A stretch of 64,000 bases of DNA, taken from positions 1-64,000 of the forward strand of contig NZ_JAILYN010000009.1 in assembly GCF_019795155.1 (NCBI RefSeq), read 5' to 3'. This document shows, piece by piece, positions 1 through 55,965 of this stretch (the first letter of the stretch is position 1; every line of letters begins with the position of its first letter). Source of the DNA: Marinobacterium arenosum. Its GTDB lineage: Bacteria > Pseudomonadota > Gammaproteobacteria > Pseudomonadales > Balneatricaceae. The translations under genes and the position numbers were made by a program. The notes under the pieces are model-generated. The model was not told where the DNA came from. It made no database searches and saw nothing but the letters and a program-made list of their open reading frames with translations.

Positions 1-120
1 GAATAGGAGCCGGGGCCTCATCTACAGGGCAGTCTTTTCGACTTCGCAGCCCGCCTGGCTCACCGGCTCCTTGCGATGGGCGGTAGCTAATCACCCATCA
101 ACGAGAGATACAAGCAGCCC

Positions 121-458
121 GCTTCGAGGGCGGCACCTTCGGGCTGTGCCAAGGCCTGTCGCGGTCAGAGCCCGCTGCTACGGATGCCGTACTCCGTAGC
201 AGTCCGCTTCGAGGGCGACACCGTTGGACTGTGCCAAGGCCTGTCGCGGTCAGAGCCCGTTGCTACGGACGCCGTGCTCCGTAGCAGTCCGCTTCGAGGG
301 CGACACCGTCGGACCATGCTAACCTGTCGCGGTCAGAGCCCGCTGCTACGGATGCCGTACTCCGTAGCAGCCCGCTCCGAGGGCGACACCTTCGGACCGT
401 GCCAAGGCCTGTCGCGGTCAGAGCCCGCTGCTACGGACGCCGTGCTCCGTAGCAGCTC
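121..458. repeat. Four tandem 83-85 bp repeats, each with a stem-loop
   Basis: Four head-to-tail copies start at 121, 206, 291 and 374; three are 85 bp and the third is 83 bp. Each copy ends with the same inverted repeat, CTGCTACGGA ... TCCGTAGCAG, around an 8-base loop. The loop alternates between TGCCGTAC (copies 1 and 3) and CGCCGTGC (copies 2 and 4), so the two differences are paired. No unique spacers separate the copies, so it is not a CRISPR array. An open frame runs through part of the array but it simply translates the repeat and has no ribosome binding site. The flanks (1-120 and 459-503) show no gene. Confidence 0.85.
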
Positions 459-503
459 GCTTCGCGAGCGAGCGGAATTGGCACCGACTTTCGTTTGTCG
501 CCG

Positions 504-1253: not shown

Positions 1254-1461
1254 CGGCGCAGTGTATCCCAAGGCGGCGGCCGAGGGCAGGAGTCCTGATC
1301 AGACTTGCAGCCGGATGGCGACAGGATAGGGGAGGCCTCATGAACCGGAAAAGCCGCTGCCTGCTATCTGTCCCGTGTTCCGCTTCGATATCGCTTGCCG
1401 CTCTCCGAAGGGGCATAAAATTGACTAGGCTGTAGTGGCGATCCAAAGAAGGAGTGCCGCG

Positions 1462-2574
1462 ATGGGGCAACCGGCGACAGGGTTTCTGGCCAGGGCCGAC
1501 TTGCAGCGGTTGATCGAGCTGATCCGGGCCGACGGCTACCGGCTGCTCGGTCCGCAACTGCGTGACGGCGCGCTGCAGTTTCTCGAACTGGAATCGACCG
1601 ACCAGCTGCCGCGCCGCCAGCAGGCGGAGCAGGCACCGGGCTATTACCGGCTGCAGACCAGCGAGTCGGCGCGCTGGTTCGATATCGTCAACGGCCCCCA
1701 GGCATTGAAACCGCTGCTGTTCGCGCCACGTGAAACCCTCTGGCGGTCCGAACAGCGAGCCGACGGCACGCTCTGTTTCCAGCCCCCCGAGCGCCCGTCA
1801 CAGCCGCTGGCGCTGCTCGGCGTGCGCAGTTGCGATCTGGCGGCGCTGCAACTGCAGGACCGCCACTTCCTGCGCGATGACCTGGCCGACGACGCCTACG
1901 CCGCCCGCCGTCGCGGCCTGCTGCTGGTGGCGGTCAACTGCAACGCACCGGCCGACACCTGTTTCTGCGCCTCCACCGGCGACGGTCCCAGCGCCGAGCA
2001 GGGCTACGACCTCTGTCTGACCGAGCTGGACCACGGCTTCCTGCTGCAGGTCGGCAGCGAACGTGGCCGGCAGCTGGCCAACCAGCTGCCGCTGAGTGAG
2101 GTGACCGAGACGATGCTGCAACAGCAGGCCGACCAGCACCAGGCGGCGGTGGCCTGCCAGTCGCGCCGGCTGCCGGTCATCGCCGCCGGCGATCTGCAGC
2201 AGCGCCATGCGCATCCCCACTGGCAGGCGGTGGCCGAGCGCTGCCTGGCCTGCGGCAACTGTACCCAGGTCTGCCCGACCTGTTTCTGCCACCGCGAGCA
2301 GCCGCTGGCCAGTCTGGAGTTCCGCTATACCGGCCAGCAGCGCGAGTGGGACTCCTGCTTCGGCGACGGTCACGCCTATCTGGCCGGCTTCCAGGTGCGG
2401 CCCGATATCGCCAGCCGCTACCGGCAATGGCTGACTCATAAACTGGACAGCTGGCAGCAGCAGTACGGCCGTAGTGGCTGTGTCGGTTGCGGACGCTGCA
2501 TCAGCTGGTGCCCGGTGGGGATCGACCTGGTCGTCGAAGCCGACGCCCTGATGAAGGAGCCGCCATGCAACTGA
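1462..2574 (+). CDS. hydB: Group 3b [NiFe] hydrogenase (sulfhydrogenase) beta subunit, 4Fe-4S protein
   Basis: The first gene of a five-gene operon encodes a 370-residue iron-sulfur protein. It resembles the beta subunit of cytoplasmic sulfhydrogenases and AsrA of anaerobic sulfite reductase. The C-terminal third carries two ferredoxin-type clusters, CLACGNCTQVCPTCFCH near residue 261 and CVGCGRCISWCP near residue 340. In the family this subunit relays electrons between the NAD(P)-reducing flavoprotein and the hydrogenase dimer. The ATG at 1462 is preceded by AAGGAG at 1449-1454, which decides against the upstream in-frame GTG. The stop overlaps the start of the gamma subunit by 10 bp, so translation is probably coupled. 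Confidence 0.9.
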   Translation: MGQPATGFLARADLQRLIELIRADGYRLLGPQLRDGALQFLELESTDQLPRRQQAEQAPGYYRLQTSESARWFDIVNGPQALKPLLFAPRETLWRSEQRADGTLCFQPPERPSQPLALLGVRSCDLAALQLQDRHFLRDDLADDAYAARRRGLLLVAVNCNAPADTCFCASTGDGPSAEQGYDLCLTELDHGFLLQVGSERGRQLANQLPLSEVTETMLQQQADQHQAAVACQSRRLPVIAAGDLQQRHAHPHWQAVAERCLACGNCTQVCPTCFCHREQPLASLEFRYTGQQREWDSCFGDGHAYLAGFQVRPDIASRYRQWLTHKLDSWQQQYGRSGCVGCGRCISWCPVGIDLVVEADALMKEPPCN

Positions 2575-3401
2575 ATCCGCAACTGCCGGTTAGCGCCGAG
2601 GTGATCGACCGAGTGCAGGAGTCGCCCAGCATCTTCACCCTGCGCCTGCGGCTGGTCGATCCGCAACAGCAGCGGGCCTACAGCTTCCAGCCCGGCCAGT
2701 TCAATATGCTCTATCTGTTCGGCGTCGGCGAGGTGGCGATCTCGATCGTCTCCGACCCCCAGGACGAAACCCTGATCGACCATACCATCCGGGTGGTCGG
2801 CCGGGTCACCGAGGGATTGGCGAAACTGCAGCCGGGCCAGCAGATCGGTCTGCGTGGGCCGTTCGGTCGCGGCTGGCCGATGGCCCAGGCGCAGGGACGC
2901 GACCTGCTGATTGTCACCGGCGGGCTGGGCTGCGCGCCGGTGGTGGCGGTGATCAACTACGTGCTGCTCAGGCGCGAGCAGTTCGGCCGGCTGACCATCA
3001 TCCAGGGGGTCAAGCATGCCGACGACCTGATCTGGCGTGCACGTTACGACTACTGGAGTCGGCTGCCCAATACCGAGGTGCTGATCGCCGCCGATCAGGG
3101 CGGGCCGCTGTGGCCGTTTCACCATGGCCGGGTCACCGACCTGCTGGAACGGCTGGAGCTGGTGCCGGCGCGCAGCATCGCCATGCTGTGCGGGCCGGAG
3201 GGGATGCTGAAGGCGGCCAGCGAGGGGCTCCGCCGGCAGGGGTTGGCCGGTGACGATATCTACCTGAGCATGGAGCGCAATATGCAGTGCGCGCTCGGTT
3301 TCTGCGGCCACTGCCAGTACGGCGCCGATTTCATCTGCCGCGACGGGCCGGTATTCAGTTACCGCCAGATCGCCGACCGGCTCGGCCGGAGGGGCGTCTG
3401 A
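2565..3401 (+). CDS. hydG: Group 3b hydrogenase gamma subunit, FAD/NAD(P) reductase
   Basis: A 278-residue ferredoxin-reductase-type flavoprotein. The N-terminal half is the FAD-binding barrel (QPGQFNMLYLFGVGEVAISI), followed by the NAD(P)-binding fold (TGGLGCAPVVAVINY). A C-terminal cysteine cluster (CALGFCGHCQYGADFIC, near residue 242) matches the dihydroorotate dehydrogenase electron-transfer subunit type and binds [2Fe-2S]. In the complex it exchanges electrons with the pyridine nucleotide pool. The start ATG lies inside the end of hydB with GAAGGAG ahead of it, and its stop overlaps the next start as TGATG. Family assignment is firm; NADPH versus NADH preference is not visible. Confidence 0.9.
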   Translation: MQLNPQLPVSAEVIDRVQESPSIFTLRLRLVDPQQQRAYSFQPGQFNMLYLFGVGEVAISIVSDPQDETLIDHTIRVVGRVTEGLAKLQPGQQIGLRGPFGRGWPMAQAQGRDLLIVTGGLGCAPVVAVINYVLLRREQFGRLTIIQGVKHADDLIWRARYDYWSRLPNTEVLIAADQGGPLWPFHHGRVTDLLERLELVPARSIAMLCGPEGMLKAASEGLRRQGLAGDDIYLSMERNMQCALGFCGHCQYGADFICRDGPVFSYRQIADRLGRRGV

Positions 3402-4198
3402 TGGCCGACATGATGACCGACAAACCCAGGGTGGCGGTGCACAAGTTCAGCTCCTGCGACGGCTGTCAGCTGGCGTTCCTGAACATGGGCGACGACCTGC
3501 TGACGTTGCTGGCGCAGCTGGAGGTGGTCCATTTCGCCGAGATGGGGGTGGTCGACGAGACGGCCGAGGCGGATATCGCCTTTGTCGAGGGCAGCGTGTT
3601 TACCGCCCATGACCGCGAGCGGATTCAGCGGATCCGCCGGCAGAGCCGCTATCTGATCACCATCGGCGCCTGCGCCACCAGCGGCGGTGTGCAGGCGCTG
3701 CGCAACTATGCCGACGACGGCGCCGACTGGTGCCAGGCGATCTACGCCAGCCCGCAGTATATCGACAGCCTGGCGACATCGACGCCGATCCGCCAGCACG
3801 TCAAGGTGGACTTCGAACTCTGGGGCTGCCCGATCAACTCGCGCCAGCTGGTGGCGCTGTTCAATGCCCTGCTGCGCGGTGTGAAGCCGGCCGAGCAGAG
3901 TGAGAAGGTCTGCCTGGAGTGCAAGCGCAATCTCAATGTCTGCACCCTGGTGGCCAGCGGCCAGCCCTGCCTGGGCGCGGTCACCCGGGCCGGCTGCGGC
4001 GCGCTCTGCCCCCGTTTCGGCCGCGACTGCTACGGTTGCTACGGCCCGTCGGAGCTGCCTAACGCCGCCTCGCTGGGCCGCTGGTTCGAGGGGATCGGTT
4101 TGAGCCGCGCGGCGAGCCGGCGCCGCTTCAAACTGATCCACAGCACCGCCTTTGAAGCGCAACACCGCAAGGAGGCCGACGATGGCGCGCAAAGTTGA
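3401..4198 (+). CDS. hydD: Group 3b hydrogenase delta (small) subunit
   Basis: This 265-residue protein is the hydrogenase small subunit, related to the 20-kDa (NuoB-like) subunit of complex I. The proximal cluster cysteines are seen in KFSSCDGCQLAFLNM near the N terminus, with further ligands in GACATSGG and in the cysteine-rich C-terminal half (CLECKRNLNVC; GCGALCPRFGRDCYGCYGP). There is no twin-arginine signal peptide, so the enzyme is cytoplasmic, as expected for group 3. The start overlaps the upstream stop by one base (TGATG). It ends 17 bp beyond the start of the large subunit, consistent with equimolar coupled translation. Confidence 0.9.
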   Translation: MADMMTDKPRVAVHKFSSCDGCQLAFLNMGDDLLTLLAQLEVVHFAEMGVVDETAEADIAFVEGSVFTAHDRERIQRIRRQSRYLITIGACATSGGVQALRNYADDGADWCQAIYASPQYIDSLATSTPIRQHVKVDFELWGCPINSRQLVALFNALLRGVKPAEQSEKVCLECKRNLNVCTLVASGQPCLGAVTRAGCGALCPRFGRDCYGCYGPSELPNAASLGRWFEGIGLSRAASRRRFKLIHSTAFEAQHRKEADDGAQS

Positions 4199-5474
4199 TC
4201 TCAATGTGCCGATCCTGGCGCGGGTCGAGGGGGAGGGCGCGCTGGAGCTGAAGATCCGCAAGAAGCGGATCAAGAAGCTGCAGTTGCGGATCTACGAACC
4301 GCCGCGCTTCTTCGAGAAGTTCCTCGAGGGGCGCCACTACGACGAGCTGCCGGACCTGGTGGCGCGGATCTGCGGTATCTGCCCGGTGGCCTACCAGACC
4401 AGTGCGGTCAACGCCCTGGAGAGTCTGTTCGGGGTCGAGGTCGGCCCCTGGGTGGCGGCGATGCGCCGGGTGCTCTATTGCGGCGAGTGGATCGAAAGCC
4501 ACGCGCTGCATATCCACCTGCTGGCGCTGCCGGACTTTTTCGGTTACGACAGCGGGGTGGCGATGGCCAGGGACTACCCGGAGCAGATCGGGCGCGGGCT
4601 CAGGTTGCAGGCGCTGGGCAACGACCTGATGCGGCTGCTCGGCGCCCGCTCGGTGCACCCGGTCGGTATCCGGGTCGGCGGCTTTCACCGGGCGCCGGAC
4701 CCCGGCGAGGTGGGGCGGATACTGGAGCGGCTGCACGCGGCGCTGCCGGAGGCGGCGCAGATGGTGCAGTGGCTGGCCAGTATCGAGCGGCCGCGCTATC
4801 CGCAGAGCTTCACTTCGGTGGCGCTGCGCAGCCCGCAGGGCTACGCGATCGACAACGGCGCACTGGTCAGCAGCGGCAGCCTGGCACTGAAGCCGGCGCA
4901 GTACCCGGACCATTTTGAAGAGTTCCAGGCGCCGCACTCCACCGCGCTCTGGAGCCAGCTGCATGGCGAGCCCTATCTGGTCGGTCCGCTGGCCCGCTTG
5001 AACCTCAATGCCGGCCAGTTGGCGACCGACTGCGATTGCGCCTTGAATGGAACGCTCAGCAATTTTCCGTCGCAGGATATGTTCGACAGCATGCTGGCGC
5101 GCGGTATCGAGATCTGCTGGGCGTTGAGCGAGGCCGCCCGCCTGCTGGAAAGCTACCAGCTGCCGGATCGGCCGGCCGTCGAGGTGCAGCCGCGTGCCGG
5201 CGTCGGTTGCGGTTGGAGCGAGGCGCCGCGCGGCCTGCTGTGGCACCGCTATGAGCTGGATGGCGAGGGCCTGGTACGCAGTGCCCGGATCGTGCCGCCG
5301 ACCAGCCAGAACCAGGCCCGCATCGAGCAGGACCTGCACCATGCGCTGGAGGCATACGGACTCGACCGACCGGTGGCAGAGTTGCGTCAGCTCTGCGAGC
5401 AGGTGATCCGCAACTACGACCCCTGTATCTCATGCGCCACCCATTTCCTGAACCTCAAATTGGATCGGCCATGA
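4182..5474 (+). CDS. hydA: Group 3b [NiFe] hydrogenase alpha (large, catalytic) subunit
   Basis: The catalytic subunit has 430 residues. Both nickel-binding pairs are intact: RICGICPVAY near residue 64 and DPCISCATH at the C terminus (C415, C418, H421). Residues after the second pair (HFLNLKLDRP) form the short C-terminal extension normally cut off by a maturation protease, and such a protease is encoded next door. The ATG at 4182 has AAGGAGG about 7 bases upstream, favouring it over the in-frame start at 4152. Family members oxidise or evolve H2 coupled to NADP(H), and some also reduce elemental sulfur or polysulfide to H2S. Sulfur reductase activity here is inference only. Confidence 0.92.
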   Translation: MARKVDLNVPILARVEGEGALELKIRKKRIKKLQLRIYEPPRFFEKFLEGRHYDELPDLVARICGICPVAYQTSAVNALESLFGVEVGPWVAAMRRVLYCGEWIESHALHIHLLALPDFFGYDSGVAMARDYPEQIGRGLRLQALGNDLMRLLGARSVHPVGIRVGGFHRAPDPGEVGRILERLHAALPEAAQMVQWLASIERPRYPQSFTSVALRSPQGYAIDNGALVSSGSLALKPAQYPDHFEEFQAPHSTALWSQLHGEPYLVGPLARLNLNAGQLATDCDCALNGTLSNFPSQDMFDSMLARGIEICWALSEAARLLESYQLPDRPAVEVQPRAGVGCGWSEAPRGLLWHRYELDGEGLVRSARIVPPTSQNQARIEQDLHHALEAYGLDRPVAELRQLCEQVIRNYDPCISCATHFLNLKLDRP

Positions 5475-5932
5475 CAAAGATTATCGCGATCGGCTCGCCC
5501 CACGGTGATGACCGCTTTGGCTGGGTATTGCTGCAACGGCTGGTGGCCGCCGGTGTGCCCGCCGGCCTGGAGCTGACCGCGTTGGACCGGCCCGGTCCCG
5601 GCCTGCTGCAGCAACTGTCGCCGGAGCGGCCGACGCTGCTGGTCGATGCGGTCGATGCCGGCCTGCCGCCGGGGCAATTGCTCTGGCTGACACCCGATCA
5701 GCTGCCCTCGGTCGCCGCATCAACGGGCGACAGCCATGGCATCGGCCTGCTCGACTCGCTACAGTTGGCGACGGCGCTGGGCAAGCCGTTGCCGCCGCTG
5801 CAACTGCTGCTCTGCCAACTGCAACAGGTGCAGCCGATGGCGGAGCTGAGTCCGGCGATCGAGGCGGCGCTCGAGCCGGCCTGTGCCCAGGTCGAGCAAT
5901 GGCTGACCGCCAACAACCGGTCTACTGAGTAG
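5471..5932 (+). CDS. Hydrogenase maturation protease (HyaD/HycI family)
   Basis: A 153-residue protein beginning MTKIIAIGSPHGDDRFGW. The GxGxxxxGDD-type opening (here GSPHGDDRFG) and the later acidic motif LLVDAVDAG supply the nickel-sensing acidic residues of hydrogenase-specific endopeptidases. These enzymes remove the C-terminal peptide of the large subunit after nickel insertion. The start overlaps the hydA stop as ATGA, so it is the fifth gene of the operon. The first glycine motif has serine-proline-histidine in place of the more usual GNxxxG pattern, a divergence often seen in group 3 proteases. None of the general hyp assembly genes lie in this window. Confidence 0.85.
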   Translation: MTKIIAIGSPHGDDRFGWVLLQRLVAAGVPAGLELTALDRPGPGLLQQLSPERPTLLVDAVDAGLPPGQLLWLTPDQLPSVAASTGDSHGIGLLDSLQLATALGKPLPPLQLLLCQLQQVQPMAELSPAIEAALEPACAQVEQWLTANNRSTE

Positions 5933-7386: not shown

Positions 7387-8108
7387 AAGGGTTTCCAATT
7401 CAGTGAACTCGCATCATGCGCCCGTTCTGAAGCTGCGGTCAAGCATAGGGGCTGAACGCTGGCGATGGCGCTCGGTTGCCGCGACTCGCATGGCAATCAA
7501 CAGTCCTGCGGGCTTGCACCCCGCCAAGCGCCAATATGCTGTTATCAGCTTGCAGCTTGCAGCTTGCAGCTTGCAGCTTGCAGCTTGCAGCTTGCAGCTT
7601 GCAGCTTGCAGCTTGCAGCTTGCAGCTTGCAGCTGTGAATAACCGGGTTATCCACGGCTTCTGTGGGTAACTTGTGGGGTAACGTGGGAGTAACCTTAGA
7701 ATAGCTGTCGCCACCGCCCGTTTTCGGGCACTACGGCTTTGCTGGTGGATTTTTCAGCATCCGCTGAAAATGCCTCCAGGCCCCATATGTCAAGGGCCTT
7801 CGCCGATTGTTCCGATGCTTTTCCGATGAGCCGTCAAGACTTGATTTGTAGTTTTTTTACATGAATTCGACATCCGGATGTCATCCGCTTGTTAACAGCG
7901 GTACCGGAAATCGATCCTGTTGGGCAGGTTTTAGAATGGGGCTGTGGATAAGCTGTGGTTTAAAGCCTGTGCCAGGCACAGCTTTGCATCAGCCGACGAT
8001 GCTTATTCAGACGGGGATTATCCTGGCGCGATAGCAATGCGTAGAACCGCGCGCGTGCTGGGAGTGAAACGTCCGGCAACAACTTGGCAGGCCTTCAGCG
8101 CGTTGGCT
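7387..8108. other. Gene-poor interval with repeat, hairpin and DnaA-box-like sites
   Basis: No convincing gene lies here. The interval holds the TGCAGCT heptamer array (7546-7634), a DnaA-box-like TTATCCACG at 7648-7656, a hairpin at 7742-7779 built on TTTTCAGC/GCTGAAAA, a perfect 14-bp palindrome GACATCCGGATGTC at 7869-7882, and a perfect DnaA-box sequence TGTGGATAA at 7943-7951. Open frames crossing the array only translate the repeat. Confidence 0.6.
7546..7634. repeat. Heptamer tandem array (TGCAGCT)12
   Basis: Twelve perfect copies of TGCAGCT run from 7551 to 7634, preceded by a partial CAGCT. Because seven is not a multiple of three, the same peptide pattern appears in several frames on both strands, which explains the open frames over it. 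Copy number of such perfect arrays changes readily by slippage. Confidence 0.95.
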
Positions 8109-32584: not shown

Positions 32585-32790
32585 CAGTTAGGAGTTAACA
32601 GTGACGGAGATTATCGGGACGATGGCGGTGAGCATATGCTCTGTGCGGCACTGTTAACTGTCAACTCAAAACTGTTTACTTAAATCTGTTAACTCCCAAC
32701 TCCCAACTCCCAACTCCCAACTCCCAACTCCCAACTCCCAACTCCCAACTCCCCACTCCCAACTGTTAACTCACCACTCCCCCAACCACT
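32585..32790. repeat. Heptamer repeat region with (AACTCCC)9 array
   Basis: AACTCCC is repeated nine times without change from 32691 to 32753, then CACTCCC. It is flanked on the left by degenerate 7-base steps (CACTGT, TAACTGT, CAACTCA, AAACTGT) and, just after the cpdA stop, by the opposite-strand form (AGTTAAC, AGTTAGG, AGTTAAC). Open frames over this stretch only translate the repeat. No gene is present between cpdA and yqiA. Confidence 0.93.
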
Positions 32791-55652: not shown

Positions 55653-55965
55653 AGCCACCTCGTCGATAACTGATCTGAAAAGGATAAAAGCTGAAAAGCT
55701 CGAATCGGACGGGCAGTGGCCTGTGGGCGGCCTTGCCCAAAAATTCACCAATAGCCACGAGTCTAGTGCGGATTTTGATCGATAAATATCGGATAAATCG
55801 AATCTGGTCGATCAGGTATTTTGATGGGGTGGTGGCATGAGAGAGCATGTAGAGTCGGGTCCGGCCCTACATTGGCGTGGTGAAGAACCAGCAGGAGCTT
55901 CAGCCACAAGAAAAGGCTGTTGTGGCCGGAATCGAGAGATGGTATCTACAAATGCGAGGCATTGC

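What the first reader, a model, noticed from the sequence alone, without database searches (positions are those of the whole stretch)
121..458. Tandem 85-bp repeats with an apparently covarying hairpin
All four copies keep a 10-bp inverted repeat, and loop changes T-to-C and A-to-G occur together, alternating between copies. With one bulged C they would extend the stem as T-A or C-G. A G-U pair replaces the G-C pair at the base of the stem in copy 2. This suggests selection on RNA or cruciform structure rather than a neutral repeat.
Basis: seen in the sequence. Interest (0 to 1): 0.5.

Follow-up and report, generated by a model that had tools for sequence, protein, structure and literature searches.

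The report
REP/BIME repeat array beside an IS110
The tandem repeats are an ordinary array of paired REP palindromes, a well-known kind of bacterial mobile repeat, with the end of an insertion sequence beside them; the apparent covarying hairpin does not hold up when other copies in the genome are compared.

Summary
The repeats are real: 85 bp, 4.2 copies, 113-471. They are not a new structured RNA. Each unit is a BIME: two GTAG-headed REPs facing each other, REP-B on the minus strand and REP-A on the plus strand. The genome holds about 440 REP-A and 320 REP-B sites, with 0 control matches. The likely cognate RAYT (Y1_Tnp) gene lies inside such arrays at C13:544-999; its nearest relative outside this genome, in Pontibacterium granulatum, is flanked by the same REP pair.

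Its T-A/C-G covariation fails: unpaired C..A is the commonest state (9 of 24 comparable spacers), also in the array's probable other half. Swapping spacer halves among 38 loci changes nothing.

All 19 left junctions lie in REP-A-type sites, with a CT core. Its predicted bridge-RNA target loop matches REP-A over 9 nt. Both are new members of known kinds.

The parts
1..112 (-). Left end of an IS110-family insertion sequence (the IS gene would read leftwards, beyond the contig end)
   Evidence: Identical at 18 contig ends plus one 50-base piece; followed by a REP-A-type site in 19 of 19; homologous to left ends of IS110 elements in relatives
5..71 (-). Predicted target-binding stem-loop of a bridge RNA: stem arms 63-71 and 5-13, left guide 46-54 (GCGGGCTGC), right guide 22-29 (CCCTGTAG)
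   Evidence: Fold; stem kept in 4 of 4 homologues, 36 of 36 cells. Prediction only
113..133 (+). Rest of the first REP-A, whose GTAG head is replaced by CAAG at the IS junction (AG at 113-114 is the CT core on the other strand)
159..181 (-). REP-B, unit 1
   Evidence: 1 mismatch to REP-B
196..218 (+). REP-A, unit 1
   Evidence: 2 mismatches to REP-A
244..266 (-). REP-B, unit 2
   Evidence: 2 mismatches
281..303 (+). REP-A, unit 2
   Evidence: 2 mismatches
327..349 (-). REP-B, unit 3
   Evidence: 1 mismatch
364..386 (+). REP-A, unit 3, exact consensus
   Evidence: 0 mismatches
412..434 (-). REP-B, unit 4
   Evidence: 1 mismatch
449..471 (+). REP-A, unit 4, a diverged copy with a perfect 6-bp stem
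   Evidence: Found by the looser scan; fold of 443-472
182..448 (.).

Best explanation
The array is a BIME-2-type tandem array of heterotypic REP doublets. Each unit is REP-B (minus strand), a 14-nt spacer and REP-A (plus strand), followed by 23-25 nt of outer spacer. Shown here: the alternating two-REP anatomy, its genome-wide copy number, and linkage to one RAYT gene that keeps the same REP pair in another genus. Inferred from published work on other RAYTs: the RAYT binds the single-stranded GTAG hairpin and cuts at nearby CT dinucleotides, which spreads REPs and builds BIMEs. Inferred: units within an array are homogenised by tandem duplication or recombination, which gives each locus its own spacers and copies chance variants such as T..A and C..G. 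An IS110-family element inserted into this array at a REP-A head; its predicted bridge RNA matches that site, and the window begins inside that element.
For: 456 REPs in the 39 fetched stretches; 376 of 395 neighbouring pairs are A next to B or long B in opposite orientation; 3 control hits. Genome-wide 443 A and 319 B sites, controls 0. Seven Y1_Tnp genes; the C13 one lies among exact REP-A, REP-B and long REP-B on both sides. Its two nearest relatives outside this genome, in two genomes of one other genus (64% and 60%), are flanked by the same or matching A/B pair. Within-array spacer identity 0.93 inner and 0.85 outer, against 0.55 and 0.58 between arrays. CT just 5' of GTAG in 30 of 38 loci on the A side (shuffle 13.2) and 19 of 38 on the B side (6.3). 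IS junctions: 19 of 19 left and 16 of 16 contig-end right junctions in register.
Against: No biochemistry or transcript data. Within each REP class the pair counts give little support for the stem, and single REP-A or REP-B hairpins fold only weakly as DNA (z -0.45 and -0.75). Which of the seven RAYTs acts on these REPs is inferred from position. That C33 and C105 are two sides of one insertion is inferred from 95% array identity, not from reads across it. The left guide does not match the second core base.
Confidence: 0.9

Rival explanations
1. A transcribed array of RNA (or cruciform) hairpins in which the 85-bp unit hairpin itself is under selection, with compensatory loop changes.
For: The array folds better than shuffles; compensatory spacer changes are reported for P. 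fluorescens REPINs (PMC3116915).
Against: C..A is the commonest state of the supposed pair and fills the probable other half of the array; no energy gain over swapped spacer halves; spacer pairs not above shuffles except position 3 with G-T allowed; no Rfam match.
Confidence: 0.04
2. REP arrays kept for a host function such as gyrase or IHF binding, or mRNA 3'-end protection of the neighbouring TauE-like gene, rather than as mobile repeats.
For: BIME-2 of E. coli bind gyrase (PMC2817692, passages); the array lies just past the 3' end of the gene at 504-1271.
Against: Hundreds of copies at unrelated places, period and spacers specific to each locus, and linkage to a RAYT gene fit spread by a transposase. 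Not exclusive: a mobile repeat may be used by the host.
Confidence: 0.1
3. An integron attC array, a CRISPR array or a simple minisatellite.
For: Tandem imperfect palindromes of constant period.
Against: No cassettes and no unique spacers between identical repeats; every unit resolves into two facing GTAG REPs shared with tens of other loci.
Confidence: 0.01

Closest known systems
E. coli BIME-2 (Y and Z2 REPs) with the RAYT yafM (TnpA-REP)
   Same: Two REP types alternating in opposite orientation in tandem; RAYT gene flanked by BIMEs on both sides; GTAG head; conserved stem mismatch (PMC2817692 and PMC8266576, passages)
   Different: Different REP sequences with a short 4-bp plus 1-bp stem; far more and longer arrays in the fetched set; a long REP-B variant
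REPINs of Pseudomonas fluorescens SBW25
   Same: REP doublets facing each other and able to fold as one hairpin; tandem clusters; RAYT linkage (PMC3116915, passages)
   Different: Two different REPs per doublet; no compensatory change found in the spacers here
IS621, and the REP-targeting IS110 elements ISPpu9, ISPpu10, ISPa11 and ISRm19
   Same: Insertion at one position of a REP; for IS621 also a CT core, a bridge RNA in the left end and a target ending in CTAC (PMC11208160, PMC1525189, passages)
   Different: Other target guides (GCGGGCTGC and CCCTGTAG); second core base not matched by the left guide; recombinase gene and donor loop missing from this assembly

Membership tests
REP (GTAG class) | GTAG or GTGG head followed by a GC-rich imperfect palindrome | tested here: met
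   Consensus from 456 copies; window copies
REP (GTAG class) | High copy number in the genome | tested here: met
   443 and 319 sites at up to 3 mismatches, controls 0
REP (GTAG class) | Extragenic position | tested here: inconclusive
   The window array lies between the IS end and the 3' end of a TauE-like gene; other loci were not annotated
BIME-2 | REPs in alternating orientation in tandem modules | tested here: met
   390 of 395 neighbouring pairs within 60 bp are in opposite orientation
BIME-2 | Binds DNA gyrase | not testable with these tools
   Needs an experiment
RAYT / REPtron | Y1_Tnp protein with HUH and catalytic Tyr | tested here: met
   PF01797 46.7 bits; HLH and ARYIVANP in P0001, motifs recognised from memory; weak match to solved TnpArep 4er8, E 0.0015
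RAYT / REPtron | Gene flanked by two inverted cognate REPs that are abundant in the genome | tested here: met
   L051 flanks; relatives
RAYT / REPtron | Single-stranded REP cleavage at CT, dependent on GTAG | not testable with these tools
   Only the CT dinucleotides were counted
IS110 family | DEDD_Tnp_IS110 plus Transposase_20 recombinase | tested here: inconclusive
   Present in three relatives' elements; own copies show only the last 26-36 codons, no PF02371 in the assembly
IS110 family | Insertion at a fixed target around a short core | tested here: met
   19 of 19 left and 16 of 16 contig-end right junctions; CT core
IS110 family | Left-end bridge RNA whose target loop matches the site | tested here: met
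   9-nt match, 35 of 20000 shuffles; G124 8 nt at its own site, 111 of 20000; G008 6 visible nt. Predicted, not detected as RNA
IS110 family | Donor-binding loop matching the IS ends | not tested
   Lies beyond the contig ends in this genome; not examined in relatives

The most novel reading that the evidence does not exclude
Two unrelated mobile systems share one 4-base handle. The REP head GTAG is the guide motif of the RAYT and part of the target of an RNA-guided IS110 element. Insertion changes the head of one half-REP from GTAG to CAAG, so that REP should no longer be cut by the RAYT; as IS110 elements excise without scar this may be reversible. The hundreds of REPs would be a safe landing field that lets the IS reach about 18 copies while sparing genes.
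Probability: 0.25. Interest if true: 0.45.

Novelty: new member of a known kind. Interest (0 to 1): 0.27.

Why it matters
It removes a false lead and shows how two variants copied within one short array can mimic covariation. It adds a dense, heterotypic REP/BIME system with its RAYT, and an IS110-family element whose predicted target guides match those REPs: 19 left and 16 right junctions in one genome are a natural test of bridge-RNA targeting.

Tried and rejected
Rfam at gathering scores gave nothing; at E up to 5 five matches far below their gathering scores. PF02371 in the own assembly: none. A fuzzy-regex REP scan missed many copies and was replaced by a Hamming scan; no count is taken. 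MAFFT on four left ends put a gap inside the stem, so the stem was compared by position, with stem arms chosen by eye. Covariation inside each REP class is weak (A pair 8-20, 10 of 1000 shuffles; B pair 10-18, 55 of 1000; others no better than shuffles), so I do not rest on it. A generic GTAGGAG pattern in the window found nothing. The 24 spacers are those that fit the pattern of the window spacers, out of 183 parsed; the others differ too much to compare base by base. The attC, CRISPR and small-RNA readings were rejected as given under rivals.

Full report
What was reported and whether it is there. The window starts at base 1 of contig C105 of a 4.8-Mb draft genome in 115 contigs. An 85-bp tandem repeat runs from 113 to 471. 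The hairpin, the G-U in copy 2 and the alternation of T..A with C..G in the loop are as described.

What the unit is. A search of the same genome gave 101 matches. I fetched the places as 39 stretches, the window's own included. An iterated profile matched nearly every unit on both strands, so the unit is an imperfect palindrome; period and spacers differ by locus. Each unit resolves into two elements facing each other: REP-A, GTAGCAGCCCGCTCCGAGGGCGA, and REP-B, GTAGCAGCGGGCTCCGACCGCGA, with an 18-nt longer form of REP-B at some places. The 39 stretches hold 456 of these: 227 A, 201 B, 28 long B, against 3 hits in reversed sequence. Of 395 neighbouring pairs within 60 bp, 376 are A beside B or long B in opposite orientation, 14 are opposite but of one type, and 5 have the same orientation. 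Genome-wide counts at up to 3 mismatches are 443 for A and 319 for B, with 0 for the reversed patterns; A and B differ at 4 positions, so some sites may be counted twice. These are the marks of REPs arranged as BIMEs (PMC2817692, passages read).

The transposase. The genome has seven Y1_Tnp genes. The one at C13:544-999 sits among REP-A, REP-B and long REP-B on both sides. A second, at C36, is flanked by another class, GTAGCAGCCCACTCTGTGGGCGAC. The C13 protein contains HLH and ARYIVANP, which I recognise from memory as the HUH and tyrosine motifs; it matches PF01797 (46.7 bits) and, weakly, the solved TnpArep 4er8 (E 0.0015). Of 57 genomes searched, 18, own included, have a relative at E 1e-20 or better. 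The two nearest outside this genome (64% and 60%) are in G024 and G010, of one other genus. G024 is Pontibacterium granulatum, judged from equal contig length and coordinates; its RAYT has REP-A and REP-B type repeats on both sides. G010 has GTAGCAGCCCTCTCCGAGGGC and GTAGCAGCGGTCTCCGACCGC beside the gene. REP-A at up to 2 mismatches occurs in 7 of 57 genomes, own included. A scan of one genome for each of 84,980 species found the exact 23-mer in 33 stretches, all of P. granulatum or Pseudomaricurvus alkylphenolicus (that scan may leave out the window's own genome).

The covariation claim. Seven of the ten stem pairs are the facing REP heads. The other three come from the 14-nt spacer; all three are Watson-Crick in 3 of 38 loci and in 8 of 183 spacers. 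For the two 'covarying' bases, the 24 comparable spacers, in seven loci, give C/A 9, C/G 8, G/G 3, T/A 2, T/G 1 and A/G 1. Contig C33 begins in an array 95% identical to the window array, and its three comparable spacers all read C..A; the third is cut by the IS end. T..A and C..G are therefore most simply two separate transitions from an unpaired C..A state, then copied within the array. Pairing at the first five spacer positions is not above shuffles, except position 3 when G-T pairs count (29 of 2000 shuffles reach it). Exchanging right halves of spacers among 38 loci leaves the mean folding energy unchanged (127 of 300 swaps as low with RNA parameters, 203 of 300 with DNA parameters). This differs from the report that compensatory changes are common in P. 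fluorescens REPINs (PMC3116915, passages read). A simpler constraint on the spacer is a CT dinucleotide just 5' of GTAG: in 30 of 38 loci on the A side against 13.2 in shuffles, and 19 of 38 on the B side against 6.3. RAYTs studied in vitro cut at CT near the REP (PMC8266576, passages read).

Where structure may be selected. REP-A and REP-B differ at four positions that form two stem pairs, CC/GG against GG/CC, so each keeps its stem. The last REP-A in the window has a perfect 6-bp stem. Most copies keep a G.A mismatch in the stem (47 of 78 distinct A, 51 of 60 distinct B), which recalls the bulge that the E. coli RAYT needs (PMC8266576). Within each class the pair counts give little support, and the single hairpins fold only weakly.

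The sequence before the array. Window 1-112 is found at 18 contig ends and once as a 50-base piece inside C44. In 19 of 19 cases it is followed by AAGCAG and the rest of a REP-A-type palindrome. The other end of the same element ends 16 contigs, and all 16 continue with CTAC; diverged relatives of that end lie at other places, not all followed by CTAC. The two junction types point to an empty site GCGGGCTG-CT-AC with CT as shared core; 16 of 19 left sides read GCGGGCTGCT and 3 have one mismatch. The last codons at that end match genes in relatives (5 of 116 genomes of the family have a match, own included). Three such genes carry DEDD_Tnp_IS110 and Transposase_20. The gene itself is not in this assembly, as expected of a collapsed repeat.

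Guidance. Read on the minus strand, 71 to 5 folds as a stem that encloses GCGGGCTGC, a small hairpin and CCCTGTAG. In four homologous elements the nine stem pairs are kept in 36 of 36 cells (2 of them G-T), with both-sided changes at seven of nine positions (the arms were chosen by eye). GCGGGCTGC equals the left side of the target over 9 nt including the first core base; 35 of 20000 shuffles of the loop do as well. The second core base is not matched. The right guide pairs with CTAC and then with G or A. The G124 loop matches that element's own, different site over 8 nt (111 of 20000 shuffles), and in G008 the six visible bases match. This is the layout described for IS621, whose target ATCAGGCCTAC also has a CT core (PMC11208160, passages read). 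IS110 elements inserted at one position in REPs are known from Pseudomonas and Sinorhizobium (PMC1525189, passages read).

Verdict. The array is a REP/BIME array of a RAYT system, probably one half of an array split by an IS110-family element. Both kinds are known and the members appear new; I saw no paper on them in three searches by system name, which do not test the sequences themselves.

Noticed in passing
window 55874-55950: Diverged remnant of the right end of the IS110-like element (82% over 42-124 of L019), ending GAATCGAGAGATGGTATCTAC exactly; several similar remnants elsewhere start at the same base and are preceded by GCCGGGTCCGGCCCTACATTGG, like a MITE.
   Followed up: partly
window 7546-7634: Perfect heptamer repeat CAGCTTG x 12.7; three or more copies in a row also occur on contigs C1, C25, C58, C72 and C83, and with one mismatch on C31.
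   Followed up: partly
window 32691-32764: Heptamer repeat AACTCCC x 10.6, next to a 14-mer AACTGTTAACTCAA repeat.
   Followed up: no
window 1435-5932: Frames that look to me like a NiFe (sulf)hydrogenase cluster with a maturation protease, named from the sequence alone without a family search.
   Followed up: no
L054 (C36): A second RAYT with its own REP class, GTAGCAGCCCACTCTGTGGGCGAC, on both sides; that palindrome also appears in arrays L026 and L037 beside REP-B, so arrays can be hybrid.
   Followed up: partly
L010, L016, L030, L038, L051: Long REP-B with 18 extra nt (CTTGGCATGCCCCTTGGGTACCGA in place of CTCCGA), 28 copies in the fetched stretches; function unknown.
   Followed up: partly
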